DNA from: Lactiplantibacillus pingfangensis
Lineage (GTDB): Bacteria; Bacillota; Bacilli; Lactobacillales; Lactobacillaceae
Length of the DNA: 64,000 nt
Direction: 5' to 3'
Assembly (NCBI RefSeq): GCF_005404945.1
Contig: NZ_BJDG01000019.1
Coordinates: forward strand, 1 to 64,000
In this document: one piece after another, positions 48,286-53,048 of the stretch
How positions within the stretch are numbered: position 1 is the stretch's first letter
Layout of the letters: each line of letters begins with the position of its first letter
The notes under the pieces: generated by a model
What the model saw: only the letters and a program-made list of their open reading frames with translations
The model's database searches: none
Told to the model about the DNA's origin: nothing
Translations under genes and position numbers: made by a program

Positions 48286-48861
48286 ATGAAAACAAAAGCA
48301 TTAGTTTTAGGACTTGCAACGATTGCGAGTGTTAGTTTGTTCACACAATTATCTGTTCAGGCTGCGGATGACGCTTTAACCGGCAACTCAGTGGGTGAAT
48401 TTGAAGTCGCAAAAGGCGCACTCACCTTAGACGCAGTCCCAACCTTTGCCTTTGAAGGCACGACCGTGAAAACCTTAGTCACTTCTGGGGCTAATTTGGC
48501 TTATCAAAATGACGCCATTAAAACTGGGTCGACCACTGGCACTAATTTGACGGTGAGCGATTATCGTGGGAGTGATCAGCCAGACTGGAATTTAAACGCG
48601 AAAATGGGCAACTTTGTCAACGGCGCAACGGCCATTGCCGGTAGCATCACTTACGCCACTGACAATACCGCAACTGGTACGGTGACGGGCGCGGATAGTT
48701 CTATTTGGAACAATACGAAAGCTAAAACGGCCGGGGTCGGTTCTGCTACTGCCGGGACGACGACGGATACCAAGTTAGTGTTACCTAAAACGGCCAGTGT
48801 CGCGACCGGGACTTATGATGCCGATTTGACTTGGACCTTGAGTGCAACGGCTAGTGACTAG
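48286..48861 (+). CDS. WxL-domain cell-surface protein
   Basis: A 191-residue secreted protein with signal peptide (cleavage near VQA-ADD) and two WxL motifs: PDWNLNAKMGNF in the middle and LTWTLSATAS at the extreme C-terminus, the hallmark of WxL domains that bind peptidoglycan non-covalently. GGAGG precedes the ATG. Its 3' end overlaps the DUF916 gene. Confidence 0.85.
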   Translation: MKTKALVLGLATIASVSLFTQLSVQAADDALTGNSVGEFEVAKGALTLDAVPTFAFEGTTVKTLVTSGANLAYQNDAIKTGSTTGTNLTVSDYRGSDQPDWNLNAKMGNFVNGATAIAGSITYATDNTATGTVTGADSSIWNNTKAKTAGVGSATAGTTTDTKLVLPKTASVATGTYDADLTWTLSATASD

Positions 48862-49885
48862 GCTAGAGCGCTGGACGCTGATTCTTTTAAGTACCATTGC
48901 GGGCCTGTTCATCGGCGTACAGTCATTGACTGGTCAGGCCGCGACTAGTAATGGCGCCGGATTTACGGTTCAAATGGTGCCTAATTCGCAACAGACGACC
49001 GGGATCACTAACTATTTTGATTTAACAGTGAAACCGGGGCAAACCGGGACGGTTCAGATGCGCGTGGTGAATTTGACCAAACAGCGGTTACGACTCCAAC
49101 TCACGAGCAACACTGGGTACACGACGACTAACGGGACTGAATCGTATGATTTAGCCAAACTCGGTGCTAAGAGTACGGCGCAATATCAGTTACGAGACTT
49201 GTTCAAAACGCCAGCCAAACTCACGCTAGACCCCGCGGAAACGAAATTGGTGACCGTTCCATATCAAGTGCCAGCAGCAGGGTTCAAGGGTATTCTTGAA
49301 GGGGCTTTTTACTTTTTAAATTTGGCGAGTGGGTCGGAACAGGCGACCAATCAAAAGGGCTTCTACTTGCATAACCGTTATGCGGTGGCGTTAGGGTTAG
49401 TCTTGCGTGAAAGTACGGCGTCCAAGGTTAAGCCAAAGTTAGTACTGAAACACATTGGCACGGGAATTGAACAACGTCAGAAGTTCAGTCCGGCAATCAG
49501 TGTTCGGCTTGCCAACGTCGCACCGCAGTTACTCAAAAAAATGACGATTGATGGGCGAATCTACGATCAAAGTAACCGATTAAACTATCGGACGAAACGC
49601 AGTGGCCTCGGCATGGCGCCCGCGTCCAACTTTGATTATTTGATCAACACGGGCAACAAGCGATTAGCCGCAGGAAAGTATCGGCTGCACTTAGTTGCCA
49701 CGGCTGGCGGTCAACGCTGGGTTTTTGATCAGCAATTTACGATTTCACGCACCGCCGCGAACAAGGCGAACGCCGAAACACCGCGCAACTTGCAGTGGCT
49801 CTGGTGGTTATTGTTGGTTATCGTCATCTTATTAGTTATCTGGTTTGCTTATCGTATTGGTAAGCATCAGGCTAAAAAGAAGTAG
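48842..49885 (+). CDS. DUF916/DUF3324 WxL-interacting protein
   Basis: A 347-residue protein with an N-terminal signal helix (WTLILLSTIAGLFIGVQSLT), a DUF916-type Ig-like domain (YFDLTVKPGQTGTVQMRVVN), a DUF3324-type second domain, and a C-terminal membrane helix WLWWLLLVIVILLVIWFAYR with a basic tail. Such proteins anchor or present WxL partners. GTG starts at 48842 or 48854, both inside the end of the WxL gene. Confidence 0.85.
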   Translation: MQRLVTRLERWTLILLSTIAGLFIGVQSLTGQAATSNGAGFTVQMVPNSQQTTGITNYFDLTVKPGQTGTVQMRVVNLTKQRLRLQLTSNTGYTTTNGTESYDLAKLGAKSTAQYQLRDLFKTPAKLTLDPAETKLVTVPYQVPAAGFKGILEGAFYFLNLASGSEQATNQKGFYLHNRYAVALGLVLRESTASKVKPKLVLKHIGTGIEQRQKFSPAISVRLANVAPQLLKKMTIDGRIYDQSNRLNYRTKRSGLGMAPASNFDYLINTGNKRLAAGKYRLHLVATAGGQRWVFDQQFTISRTAANKANAETPRNLQWLWWLLLVIVILLVIWFAYRIGKHQAKKK

Positions 49886-49907: not shown

Positions 49908-49934
49908 CCACTACCAATTAATTAATGGCTGTCA

Positions 49935-50123
49935 CTTCCGGTTGGAACTGATAACATGCGGTCGTGGGACCGGTCCAAGCCAAGTACGTCTTGGACCTCG
50001 CCCGGAACCCTTGCAAAAGTCGCAAGTGTCCCGGACCGTCCGTGGCGTAACGTCGGCAAAAATCGGCCGATGTAACGCCACCATCACGACCGATGCTATC
50101 AGTCCCAACCTTCAGCAAATTTA
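49935..50123 (-). ncRNA. structured RNA element, copy 1 (unknown family)
   Basis: On the minus strand: closing stem GGTTGGGACTGATAGCAT (50110-50093) with ATGTTATCAGTTCCAACC (49957-49940), 18 pairs including two G-U; hairpin A GTGGCGT/ACGCCAC (50081-50075, 50048-50042); hairpin B CCGGGACACTTGC/GCAAGGGTTCCGG (50034-50022, 50014-50002), 12 of 13 pairs; hairpin C GGTCCAAG/CTTGGACC (49997-49990, 49979-49972). It aligns end to end with copy 2, with compensatory changes in every helix. The strand is supported by G-U pairs in the closing stem. Confidence 0.7.
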
Positions 50124-50302
50124 GCATGGCTGAGAAGGGCAGAAACGTTTCTAGACCGCTTCTCGGCTAGGATTGTCCCAAAGTGGATGGCGATTCCGAC
50201 TGACAGAGTGCTAGTAACGATTTTAGTTTAAAAGTACCGTTGTCGATATGAGTCTATTAGCGTTTCTTGTTGTATTTACAACTTTCAGATAAAAAACAAA
50301 TT

Positions 50303-50341
50303 ATGGCGGTTAATCCTGTTGTATCAAGGATTAACCGCCAT
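50303..50341 (-). terminator. hairpin with T-run on minus strand
   Basis: ATGGCGGTTAATCC/GGATTAACCGCCAT perfect arms, with AATTTGTTTTTT following on the minus strand. It lies between the two RNA copies and would shield copy 1 from minus-strand readthrough. Confidence 0.6.
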
Positions 50342-50412
50342 AGTATTTATCGGAAGTAATCTTAAACGTCAAAAGTAGAATGCTGACAATTAGAATTGTG
50401 TTCAATTACAGG

Positions 50413-50604
50413 TAAATTTAGCGGTAGGTTGTTGCTGATGCCATCGGGCGTGAAGGTCCCGTTGGGGCGGCGGTCTTTGCCGGTCGTACGGGACGGACCG
50501 GCCGGGATAGTTGCGGTTTTTGCAACCATTCCGGGCGAGGGGGAAGACCGCTCCTCAGGCTTTCCCCGGTCCCTCGTCCGCATGGCATCAGCAACAACCG
50601 GAAG
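50413..50604 (+). ncRNA. structured RNA element, copy 2 (unknown family)
   Basis: Plus strand: closing stem GGTTGTTGCTGATGCCAT (50427-50444) with ATGGCATCAGCAACAACC (50582-50599), all Watson-Crick; hairpin A GTCCCGT/ACGGGAC (50456-50462, 50488-50494); hairpin B CCGGGATAGTTGC/GCAACCATTCCGG (50502-50514, 50522-50534); hairpin C GGGGGAAG/CTTTCCCC (50539-50546, 50560-50567). Conserved linkers with copy 1 include CATCGG.CGTGA, TTTGCCG, TTCCGGGCGAGG and CCGGTCCC.CG.CCGCATG. Short ORFs crossing it look accidental. Confidence 0.7.
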
Positions 50605-50645
50605 CGGCAATAGCGCACCAACTTTCAACGTTTAATTATAGTAAT

Positions 50646-50686: not shown

Positions 50687-52918
50687 TTATTCAGTTGCTT
50701 TTGGTTCTTCCGCAGCTAAGACAATTTTACCGTCTTCAACTTTGGCAACCATGTTCTTCACATCGCCATGATCCAAGTAGAAGTCCGCAATCCGGTCTTC
50801 AATCTGTTCTTGGATGACCCGCCGTAGTGGCCGAGCACCCATTTCAGGATTGTAACCGAGATCGACAAGCTTAGCTTCGACTGGTTCCGTAACGTGCACG
50901 TGCAAGTCTTGGTTGGCAAGCATGCCGTTGACATCCGCAATCATCAACCCAACGATCTTCATCAAGTTTTCCTTTGATAAAGCGTTGAACTGGATAATAT
51001 CATCAAACCGGTTCAAGAACTCTGGTTTGAAGTAGTTACCTAATTGACTGGTAATATCGTGGGTCTTGCCTTCAGCAGCGGCTCCAAAGCCAACGTTAGC
51101 TTCGGAATCGCCAGTCCCAGCATTTGAAGTCATGATGATGATCGTATCCTTGAAGCTAACCGTACGACCTTGTGAGTCGGTCAAACGGCCATCATCTAAG
51201 ATTTGTAAGAACATGTGCATGACGTCAGGGTGGGCCTTTTCGATTTCATCAAGCAAAATCAAGCTGTATGGGTGACGACGAACTTGTTCGGTCAATTGAC
51301 CGGCTTCTTCGTAGCCAACATAGCCAGGCGGTGACCCAATCAATTTAGCCACTGAATGTGGTTCCATGTATTCACTCATGTCAAAGCGGATCATGGCATC
51401 TTCAGAGCCAAAGAGTTCTTTAGCTAATTGCTTGGCTAATTCAGTTTTACCAACCCCAGTCGGGCCGACAAACATGAATGACCCAATTGGCCGACCAGTG
51501 CCGTTCAAACCAATCCGATTACGACGAATTGCCCGAGAAACGGCTTCAACTGCCCGATCTTGGCCGATGACTTTACCTTCCAAATCACTGGCTAAGGTCT
51601 TCATTTGGGCTTGTTCCTTAGCTTGCAATTCACCAACTGGAATGTCAGTCTTTTCTTCGACAATTTGTTGCATGTCTTCGACGGTAACCGTGGCAGCGTC
51701 TTCTGGCGTGGCGTCACTGTTTTCGTCTGGTTTGGCTTTTTCGAGTTTAGCCACTTGATCACGGTAGTAAGCCGCTTTCTCGTAGTCTTCCTTCTTCAAA
51801 GCATCTTGTTTTTGGGCCTCAGCACCGTCAATTTTTTCTTGAATCGTCTTAGGATCAACGGTCTTTAACGTTAAGTTTTTCCGTGACCCAGCTTCATCGA
51901 GCAAATCAATGGCCTTGTCAGGCAAGAACCGGTCTTGAATGTACCGGTTTGATAACTTGACCGCCGCAACGATTGCATCAGCATTGTACTTCACATGATG
52001 GTAATCTTCGTACTTCTTTTGAATCCCTTGTAAAATCTTGATGGATTCGTCAACACTCGGTTCGTCAACCGTCACTGGCTGGAAACGCCGAGCGAGGGCG
52101 GCATCTTTTTCAATGTCGCGATATTCGTTTAAAGTGGTTGCACCAACTAATTGGAAGTCGCCACGCGCGAGGGCGGGCTTCAAGACGTTACCGGCATCCA
52201 TGCCGCCTTCAGCATTGCCGGCGCCCATGATTTCATGGATTTCGTCAATGAAGAGCACGATGTTCGGGTTCGATTGAACTTCTTTCATTAATTGTTGCAT
52301 TCGTTGTTCAAATTGGCCCCGAATCCCAGTACCTTGAACGAGGGAAGCCACATCCAAACGAATGATTTCTTTATTTAATAGTTTTTGGGGAACTTGACCA
52401 GAAACAATCTTCTGGGCGAGACCTTCAACGACCGCCGTCTTACCAACCCCAGCTTCACCAATTAAGACCGGATTGTTCTTCGTACGCCGGTTCAAAATTT
52501 CGATGACGCGGTTGATTTCATTGTCACGGCCGATCACTGGGTCAACTTTGCCTTGCTTAGCTTGATCAGTTAAGTTGTAGCCATATTGTCCAAGCAAGCC
52601 GCCACCGTTTTGCCCACGTCGGTTGCCCCCATTATTGGGACCAGCTGGTTGGGTCGGTGGGGTCTGCTGCTGTTGCCGATAGCCGTCGCCAGAATTGACG
52701 TCGCCGCCTTGCATCGCGCGGAAGATATCGTCAAGACCGCCAAAGCCAAATGGATCTTGTGCCATATCAGTACCTCCAACTCCATTATTTGGTTGCTGTT
52801 CCTGATTTTTGAGCAGTTGATAGCAATTTTGGCAAAGATTGATTTGCCGCCGCTGACCGTTGACGTTCGTATATAAATGAATCGTCGCTTCGTTCTTATG
52901 GCAATTGTCACAAAGCAT
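50687..52918 (-). CDS. clpE: ATP-dependent Clp protease ATP-binding subunit ClpE
   Basis: A 743-residue HSP100 unfoldase: N-terminal zinc finger ([23 protein letters not shown]), Gln/Gly-rich linker, AAA-1 with Walker A GEAGVGKT and [18 protein letters not shown]-like linker helix ([20 protein letters not shown]), AAA-2 with GPTGVGKT and [11 protein letters not shown], and a C-terminal D2 domain. It works with ClpP on misfolded proteins. The ATG at 52918 is chosen for AGGAAAGGTG and because the protein then opens with the zinc finger. Confidence 0.95.
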
Positions 52919-52981
52919 CTTGCTGTCACACACCTTTCCTATCAGAAAACTCACTAAATCGATGATCGATCCTAGTGGAAG

Positions 52982-53048
52982 GGTCAAAGGTTCTTTGACC
53001 TTTGTTGACCTTTGACTATTAGTATAACGATTTTTCAAGGCCGTGCAA
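52982..53048 (-). promoter_or_regulatory. clpE promoter with CtsR boxes
   Basis: Minus strand: -35 TTGCAC (53048-53043), 16-base spacer, -10 TATACT (53026-53021), then AGTCAAAGGTCAACAAAGG and GGTCAAA: tandem GGTCAA heptads at 52982-53017 of the CtsR type. This marks clpE as a member of the CtsR heat-shock regulon. Confidence 0.85.

What the first reader, a model, noticed from the sequence alone, without database searches (positions are those of the whole stretch)
49935..50604. Two head-to-head copies of a structured non-coding RNA family supported by covariation
The sequences 50123-49935 (minus) and 50413-50604 (plus) align over their full length of about 190 nt, from a shared TAAATTT to a shared CCGGAAG. 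Both fold into the same closing stem of 18 pairs and three hairpins around a four-way junction. Comparing copies, about twelve pairs change on both sides while pairing is kept: closing-stem positions 6, 8, 14 and others, hairpin A positions 3-4 (GG to CC against CC to GG), hairpin B positions 7 and 9, hairpin C positions 3-4. The non-paired linkers are the most conserved parts (TTCCGGGCGAGG, CCGGTCCC.CG.CCGCATG). DNA-only palindromes or IS ends would not be expected to conserve helices while changing sequence in this way. I know no named RNA of this shape; it is not RNase P, tmRNA, SRP or 6S RNA by length and motifs.
Basis: partly seen in the sequence, partly recalled or inferred. Interest (0 to 1): 0.88.

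Follow-up and report, generated by a model that had tools for sequence, protein, structure and literature searches.

The report
Transposon-borne cloverleaf RNA repeats
The two matching RNA-like folds are copies of an apparently uncatalogued branched structure that rides on small transposons and is repeated more than a hundred times in some genomes of lactic acid bacteria, which suggests that jumping DNA in these bacteria has spread an RNA device whose job is still unknown.

Summary
The two copies (49933-50120 minus, 50417-50606 plus) share one fold. The same module occurs at least 122 times full-length in this genome, at least 150 times in one 2.7-Mb genome of another genus (scoring cap), in 77 of 397 Lactobacillaceae and in other Lactobacillales families. 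Across 58 modules, 59 of 70 pairs change on both sides; covariation score 0.593 against 0.188 shuffled. No Rfam family covers a module. The module is cargo of mobile DNA. In Lactiplantibacillus, head-to-head module pairs sit in ~545-bp elements whose 14-bp ends and 7-9-bp target duplications match an IS4-family insertion sequence. In family f2 single modules sit in elements with ISL3-like ends and 8-bp duplications, and in one f5 genome inside an ISL3 element. The window site has no clear module in 9 relatives, two with both flanks conserved. G-U cells exceed A-C cells 227 to 64, pointing to selection on the sense strand, most simply as RNA. What the RNA does is inferred; a cis effect on transcripts crossing the element is my best guess.

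The parts
49933..50120 (-). structured module, left copy (3' end faces the 3' end of the gene 48842-49885)
   Evidence: R1 195.2 bits, R2 154.5 bits; fold z -10.33
50417..50606 (+). structured module, right copy (3' end faces the 3' end of the Clp-ATPase gene 50687-53038 minus)
   Evidence: R1 209.5 bits, R2 150.1 bits; fold z -6.95
50121..50416 (.). spacer between the 5' ends of the two modules
   Evidence: 296 bp
50303..50341 (.). 15-bp inverted repeat (stems 50303-50317 and 50327-50341) with a T-run on the minus strand (50286-50297): possible old terminator of the Clp-ATPase gene
   Evidence: read by eye; the terminator scan, loop limit 8, reports no terminator here
50622..50635 (+). possible decayed right end of an IS4-type element (CTTTCAACGTTTAA, 2 mismatches to CTTTCAACCTTTAG)
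   Evidence: read by eye; the script found no complete end-to-end span in the window

Best explanation
These are two copies of a ~190-nt structured module carried as cargo by small, non-autonomous transposable elements of Lactobacillales. Shown: in Lactiplantibacillus the modules sit, usually as a head-to-head pair, in ~545-bp elements with 14-bp terminal inverted repeats and 7-9-bp target duplications; an IS4-family element with the same ends exists in a relative, so such a transposase most likely moved them. In family f2 single modules sit in ~260-310-bp elements with ISL3-like ends and 8-bp duplications, and in one genome of family f5 the module lies inside an ISL3 element. Inferred: selection preserves the fold of the sense strand, most simply as RNA (covariation in most pairs, G-U tolerated more than A-C, fixed G-U pairs, conserved mismatch motifs AGAC/GGCU in two hairpins and a GGA/GGA internal loop). 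Most speculative (about 0.35): the folded RNA acts in cis on transcripts that cross the element, for example as a protein-bound barrier or processing site that makes insertion near gene ends tolerable; the divergent pair makes a crossing transcript end in a sense module whichever way it runs. The confidence given is for the mobile element with an RNA-level fold, not for that last step.
For: Copy number and spread. Covariation. G-U against A-C cells: 172 to 33 in 41 copies (71 to 32 without three G-U-majority pairs); 227 to 64 in 58 modules and 39 to 6 in 8 left modules. Ends and duplications: 28 of 58 end-to-end spans, one of them the IS itself, have perfect 7-9-bp flanking repeats; of 28 element loci searched afterwards, 22 hold a module. 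IS4 partner: 1567 bp, ends CTAAAGGTTGAAAC/CTTTCAACCTTTAG, 7-bp duplication, NF049925 460 bits. ISL3 carriers; f2 elements, 3 of 8 with perfect 8-bp duplications and 2 of 8 with 7 of 8. Pairs: 33 of 38 neighbours under 1 kb are minus-then-plus. Sites without the element.
Against: No transcript was looked for. No promoter is evident 5' of the modules (inspection); the window scan finds 3 promoter-like sites against 1.1 (sd 1.0) in shuffles. Single-stranded DNA could give part of the G-U excess, and counted by pairs it is modest (47 pairs with any G-U, 29 with any A-C). In this genome flanking genes would mostly read the modules in antisense. The IS4 transposase is found at E <= 1e-30 in only 5 of 26 genomes searched, not in G014 with 132 terminal-repeat matches. 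The IS4 element itself carries no module. In G351 the 12 pairs examined show no target duplication, so their mover is unknown. Four further fetched loci with IS4-type ends (L095, L100, L110, L111) show no module at E <= 0.01.
Confidence: 0.75

Rival explanations
1. The structure works as DNA: single-stranded DNA or a cruciform of the module helps transposition or replication-linked insertion, and there is no RNA function.
For: Modules are on mobile DNA; strong per-contig strand bias of copies, as expected if insertion follows the replication fork.
Against: G-U cells exceed A-C cells on the sense strand; fixed G-U pairs in 38 of 41 and 36 of 41 copies; non-standard motifs conserved across genera. 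The IS4 partner's transposase is DDE-type (Pfam DDE_5 and DDE_Tnp_1); that such enzymes need no such fold is general knowledge.
Confidence: 0.2
2. The module is an RNA part of the transposition machinery (a guide or scaffold bound by transposases or a host RNP).
For: It is found with two transposase families and, in G482, lies just 3' of the ISL3 transposase gene inside the element.
Against: The IS4-family partner and its broken relative in this genome carry no module; IS4 and ISL3 elements are not known to need an RNA (general knowledge).
Confidence: 0.1
3. A family of ordinary trans-acting small RNA genes or leader-type regulators, spread secondarily.
For: An orthologous copy between purD-like and purE genes in four genomes of family f4, the only match reported in each, with 6 candidates per genome scored.
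Against: Copy numbers over 100, mobile ends, and no fixed gene context: the gene 3' of the module is convergent for 32 of 41 copies and co-directional for 9 of 41.
Confidence: 0.12
4. Chance palindromes, plain terminators or decayed IS ends.
For: The modules lie near gene ends and on mobile elements.
Against: 0 of 500 shuffles reach the covariation measures; the fold is conserved across genera; no terminator-like site is called in the region.
Confidence: 0.02

Closest known systems
bcr repeats of the Bacillus cereus group
   Same: High-copy intergenic repeats, bcr1-bcr3 MITE-like and others with conserved secondary structure, about half of the copies expressed, often within UTRs (passages of PMC3446304 seen).
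   Different: Different host group. The present module is a ~190-nt branched fold, often in divergent pairs, on two transposon families across several families of Lactobacillales. Sequences were not compared.
BOX, RUP and SPRITE repeats of Streptococcus pneumoniae
   Same: Proliferated structured repeats, thought to be moved by resident IS elements and likely to affect co-transcribed genes (passages of PMC3049150 seen).
   Different: SPRITE is terminator-like and BOX is modular in that paper; the passages seen describe no three-hairpin fold in head-to-head pairs. Sequences were not compared.
IS4-family and ISL3-family non-autonomous elements
   Same: Ends and duplications shared with, or like those of, full IS elements.
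   Different: The interior is not a deleted transposase gene but a conserved, covarying fold.
IStrons (group I intron plus IS)
   Same: An RNA structure combined with a DNA transposon (abstract start of PMC4227781 in the listing).
   Different: No Rfam intron match in the window; none of 41 copies lies inside an ORF over 150 aa.

Membership tests
MITE (miniature inverted-repeat transposable element) | terminal inverted repeats | tested here: met
   14-bp CTAAAGGTTGAAAG ends, 75 matches with at most 1 mismatch in this genome against 2 for the reversed control; the window's own copies keep at most one decayed end
MITE (miniature inverted-repeat transposable element) | target site duplication | tested here: met
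   28 of 58 IS4-type spans perfect over 7-9 bp, best of three lengths taken; f2 elements 3 of 8 perfect over 8 bp, 2 of 8 with 7 of 8, 3 of 8 poorer; not seen for 12 pairs of G351
MITE (miniature inverted-repeat transposable element) | ends shared with an autonomous element | tested here: met
   IS4-family element in G020. For f2 the likeness to the ISL3 ends of G482 was judged by eye
MITE (miniature inverted-repeat transposable element) | AT-rich (named as characteristic in a passage of PMC3049150) | tested here: not met
   27 IS4-type spans of 500-570 bp average 0.495 G+C, the 36 own-genome loci 0.451; so I call it MITE-like, on ends and duplications
MITE (miniature inverted-repeat transposable element) | no protein coding | tested here: inconclusive
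   only short overlapping ORFs of 60-88 aa over the window modules; codon conservation not tested
Any Rfam 15 family | match at the gathering score over a module | tested here: not met
   0 in the window; in 20 further loci the only match is a T-box at L225:1298-1505, outside the modules at 702-853 and 960-1104; loose hits are far below gathering scores
IS110 bridge RNA or TnpB/IscB guide RNA | encoded with an IS110 or TnpB/IscB gene | tested here: not met
   for the two carriers identified the transposases are IS4 (NF049925) and ISL3 (NF033550); carriers of G351-type pairs are unknown
bcr / BOX / RUP / SPRITE repeats | sequence and structure of those repeats | not tested
   their sequences were not fetched; only passages of papers seen

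The most novel reading that the evidence does not exclude
The module is a new class of transposon-borne RNA that unrelated DDE transposons (IS4 and ISL3 families) have each recruited because the RNA, as a protein-bound branched fold, promotes their spread or persistence: a shared RNA device of bacterial transposons in Lactobacillales.
Probability: 0.2. Interest if true: 0.92.

Novelty: new variant of a known kind. Interest (0 to 1): 0.72.

Why it matters
Structured repeats that ride on transposons are known, but a ~190-nt branched fold with covariation in most of its pairs, found from Lactobacillaceae to other Lactobacillales families, at over 100 copies in some genomes and on two transposon families, matches no Rfam family and turned up in none of the search listings seen (a library of openly licensed papers only). 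The covariance models and the many naturally varied copies make it testable why selfish DNA would keep an RNA fold.

Tried and rejected
Rejected: Rfam families over the modules; tRNA or tmRNA; a protein-coding repeat (the 69-aa ORF over the minus copy had no confirmed relative in viral contigs); a plasmid or phage home of the plus copy (no blastn match); a fixed leader-RNA role (gene context is mixed). Not settled: whether the window copies are one pair or two insertions, since a terminator-like hairpin lies between them and each 3' end faces a gene end.

Rows dropped: of the 92 matches, 58 went into alignment A4; the 34 left out are antisense echoes that overlap sense hits and redundant or weak sense modules. 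Three weak rows were left out (142 of 145 used). The two exceptions to head-to-head order that I saw are in loci outside the sets: L187 (two plus modules 462 bp apart, in G351) and L193 (a partial plus module 117 bp before a plus module). Matches near E 1e-4 to 1e-6 may be chance, as calibration was short and 395 genomes were searched. Earlier I judged L231 by eye to have an 8-bp duplication; the fixed-offset script gives 3 of 8, so it is not counted. EFAR repeats of Enterococcus faecalis came to mind from memory; the search found no paper held. Labels: purD-like and purE (purD piece 268.8 bits, below its cut-off of 288; purE above); the window neighbour's best NCBIfam hits are Clp ATPases, all below cut-off, and ClpE is my reading; WxL-type for the left neighbour would be recalled only and has no match above cut-off.

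Full report
WHAT WAS CHECKED. The two copies are present at 49933-50120 (minus) and 50417-50606 (plus). Each folds with z-scores of -10.33 and -6.95 and they align with 82% mean column identity. No Rfam 15 family matches the window at gathering score; the loose search gives 8 matches far below gathering scores. ARAGORN finds no tRNA or tmRNA in the window.

IT IS A HIGH-COPY REPEAT. BLAST of the plus copy in its own genome gives 40 long matches at 75-100% identity, itself included, with 40 of 138 candidates scored, plus 7 short echoes. A covariance model from 41 copies finds 145 matches at E <= 0.01 with 150 of 1407 candidates scored; of 142 rows entered, 122 are at least 175 nt. Among 60 genomes, own included, 17 have matches, in 2 of 34 genera. 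Among 397 Lactobacillaceae genomes, own included, 77 have matches, in 10 of 40 genera. A second model from 58 modules of five genera gives 150 matches, the scoring cap, in the 2.7-Mb genome G351, and 41 of 395 Lactobacillales genomes, own included, at E <= 1e-4, in 14 of 80 genera, some in families other than Lactobacillaceae. In 20 further loci Rfam reports one T-box, outside the modules.

THE FOLD. A closing stem of 25 pairs, hairpin A, and a 4-pair stem that carries hairpins B and C. On 41 copies of this genome: 64 pairs, 97.3% of 2622 cells paired, 25 pairs and 229 cells changed on both sides, no shuffle of 500 as high on any measure, slid controls at most 40.5% paired. On 58 modules aligned by sequence alone: 70 pairs, 91.0% paired, 59 pairs and 924 cells changed on both sides, covariation score 0.593 against 0.188 (sd 0.006) shuffled and at most 0.112 slid. 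The structure was derived from the same alignment, so the slid control leans towards it, and related sequences can exceed the shuffles to some extent without structure. Non-standard parts conserved, read by eye: a GGA/GGA internal loop near the outer end (GCC-GGA-GG ... CC-GGA-GGC), AGAC/GGCU in two hairpins, GUUAG/CUUAC in the third, and GUGA and GGUCCC linkers. In the 34 modules of other genera the closing stem is the least conserved part (0.50 identity against 0.64 in other paired and 0.61 in unpaired columns) while staying complementary.

WHICH STRAND. G-U cells number 172 and A-C cells 33 in the 41 copies (71 and 32 without three G-U-majority pairs), 227 and 64 in the 58 modules, 39 and 6 in eight left modules. 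Counted by pairs the excess is weaker: 47 with any G-U, 29 with any A-C. This favours selection on the sense strand, most simply as RNA; single-stranded DNA is not excluded.

WHAT CARRIES IT. Twelve copies of G020 were compared. Seven span both ends at 529-544 bp, three more have internal deletions, one lacks the right end and one (L082) is diverged. The ends are CTAAAGGTTGAAAG ... CTTTCAACCTTTAG. The end pattern, with at most one mismatch, occurs 75 times in this genome against 2 control matches, and 132 times against 0 in G014. Of 58 end-to-end spans in fetched loci, nested spans and the IS included, 28 have perfect flanking repeats of 7-9 bp. A search of 28 element loci finds modules in 22 and none in L087, L104, L095, L100, L110 and L111. 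A 1567-bp element in G020 (L087) has the same ends but for one letter, a 7-bp duplication and an IS4-family transposase (NF049925, 460 bits, cut-off 250), and no module. This genome holds only a relative broken into two frames; relatives at E <= 1e-30 are in 5 of 26 genomes, so some element-rich genomes lack it today. In family f2, eight inspected modules sit in elements of 258-310 bp whose ends resemble those of ISL3 elements by eye; 3 of 8 have perfect 8-bp duplications, 2 of 8 have 7 of 8. In G482 (family f5) four copies of an element were compared: three are 99.8-99.9% identical over about 1785 bp and one is interrupted by an IS256-family insertion; the module lies between an ISL3-family transposase gene (NF033550, 302 bits) and the right end. 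In four genomes of family f4 one orthologous copy lies between a purD-like and a purE gene; it was the only match reported there, with 6 candidates per genome scored.

PAIRS. In the 545-bp element the upstream half is a diverged inverted copy of the module. Across 36 loci of this genome and 20 of G351, neighbouring modules under 1 kb apart are minus-then-plus in 33 cases and minus-minus in 5, with no plus-plus or plus-minus; gaps of the 33 run from 1 to 542 bp. In the whole-genome list of this genome the counts are 10 minus-plus, 1 minus-minus, 1 plus-plus and 0 plus-minus. Outside these sets L187 and L193 hold plus-plus neighbours. The 12 pairs of G351 show no target duplication, so how they moved is open.

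THE WINDOW SITE. Nine relatives carry the Clp-ATPase neighbour. Within about 1.4 kb of it they have no clear module; the only hit is a 64-nt, 14-bit match in L273 (E 0.009). In two of them, G009 and G020, the left gene is also in place and the gap is about 95 and 142 bp instead of about 760 bp. So the modules here look like lineage-specific insertions between two convergent genes. A 15-bp inverted repeat with a minus-strand T-run lies between the modules (by eye; not called by the scan). The two modules may therefore be separate insertions on either side of an old terminator.

ORIENTATION. With a home-made ORF caller, the gene 3' of the module is convergent with it in 32 of 41 copies and co-directional in 9; between two co-directional genes the module is antisense in 16 and sense in 2. 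Copies on one contig mostly share a strand. This may be an insertion bias tied to replication, or selection against sense modules in read-through mRNA; the two are confounded here.

MECHANISM. Shown: a mobile, repeated, covarying fold on two transposon families. Inferred: selection on the sense strand as RNA. Speculative: a cis effect on transcripts crossing the element. The rival that the fold works as DNA in transposition stays at 0.2.

LITERATURE. Ten searches listed no description of this element; only listings were seen. A term search in the text of the 2024 MITE review found no mention of Lactobacill-, ISL3, IS4 family, bcr1, EFAR or RNA secondary structure. Passages on pneumococcal repeats (PMC3049150) and bcr repeats (PMC3446304) show that structured mobile repeats as a kind are known.

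Noticed in passing
L226:1899-5035 and L227:2078-3862 (G482): An ISL3-family element in several near-identical copies; in L226 its transposase gene is interrupted by an IS256-family insertion.
   Followed up: partly
L206-L209 (family f4): An orthologous module lies between purD-like and purE genes in four genomes, the only case seen with a fixed gene context; it may have been kept for a function there.
   Followed up: partly
G018 contig starts: At least ten contigs of G018 begin within 50 bases of an IS4-type terminal repeat, which suggests near-identical copies that broke the assembly.
   Followed up: no
L033:1553-1741 (this genome): A mosaic module: its 5' part resembles the window's minus copy and its 3' part the other subfamily, which suggests recombination between copies.
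   Followed up: no
this genome, contigs C6, C2, C13, C22, C14, C7, C10: Strong strand bias of modules per contig (for example 10 plus and 1 minus on C6; 9 minus and 2 plus on C2), pointing to a link with replication or gene direction.
   Followed up: partly
L242:2710-2880 and L245:2471-2633: A divergent variant of the module in two genomes outside Lactobacillaceae; in L242 it has extra outer inverted repeats (by eye).
   Followed up: no
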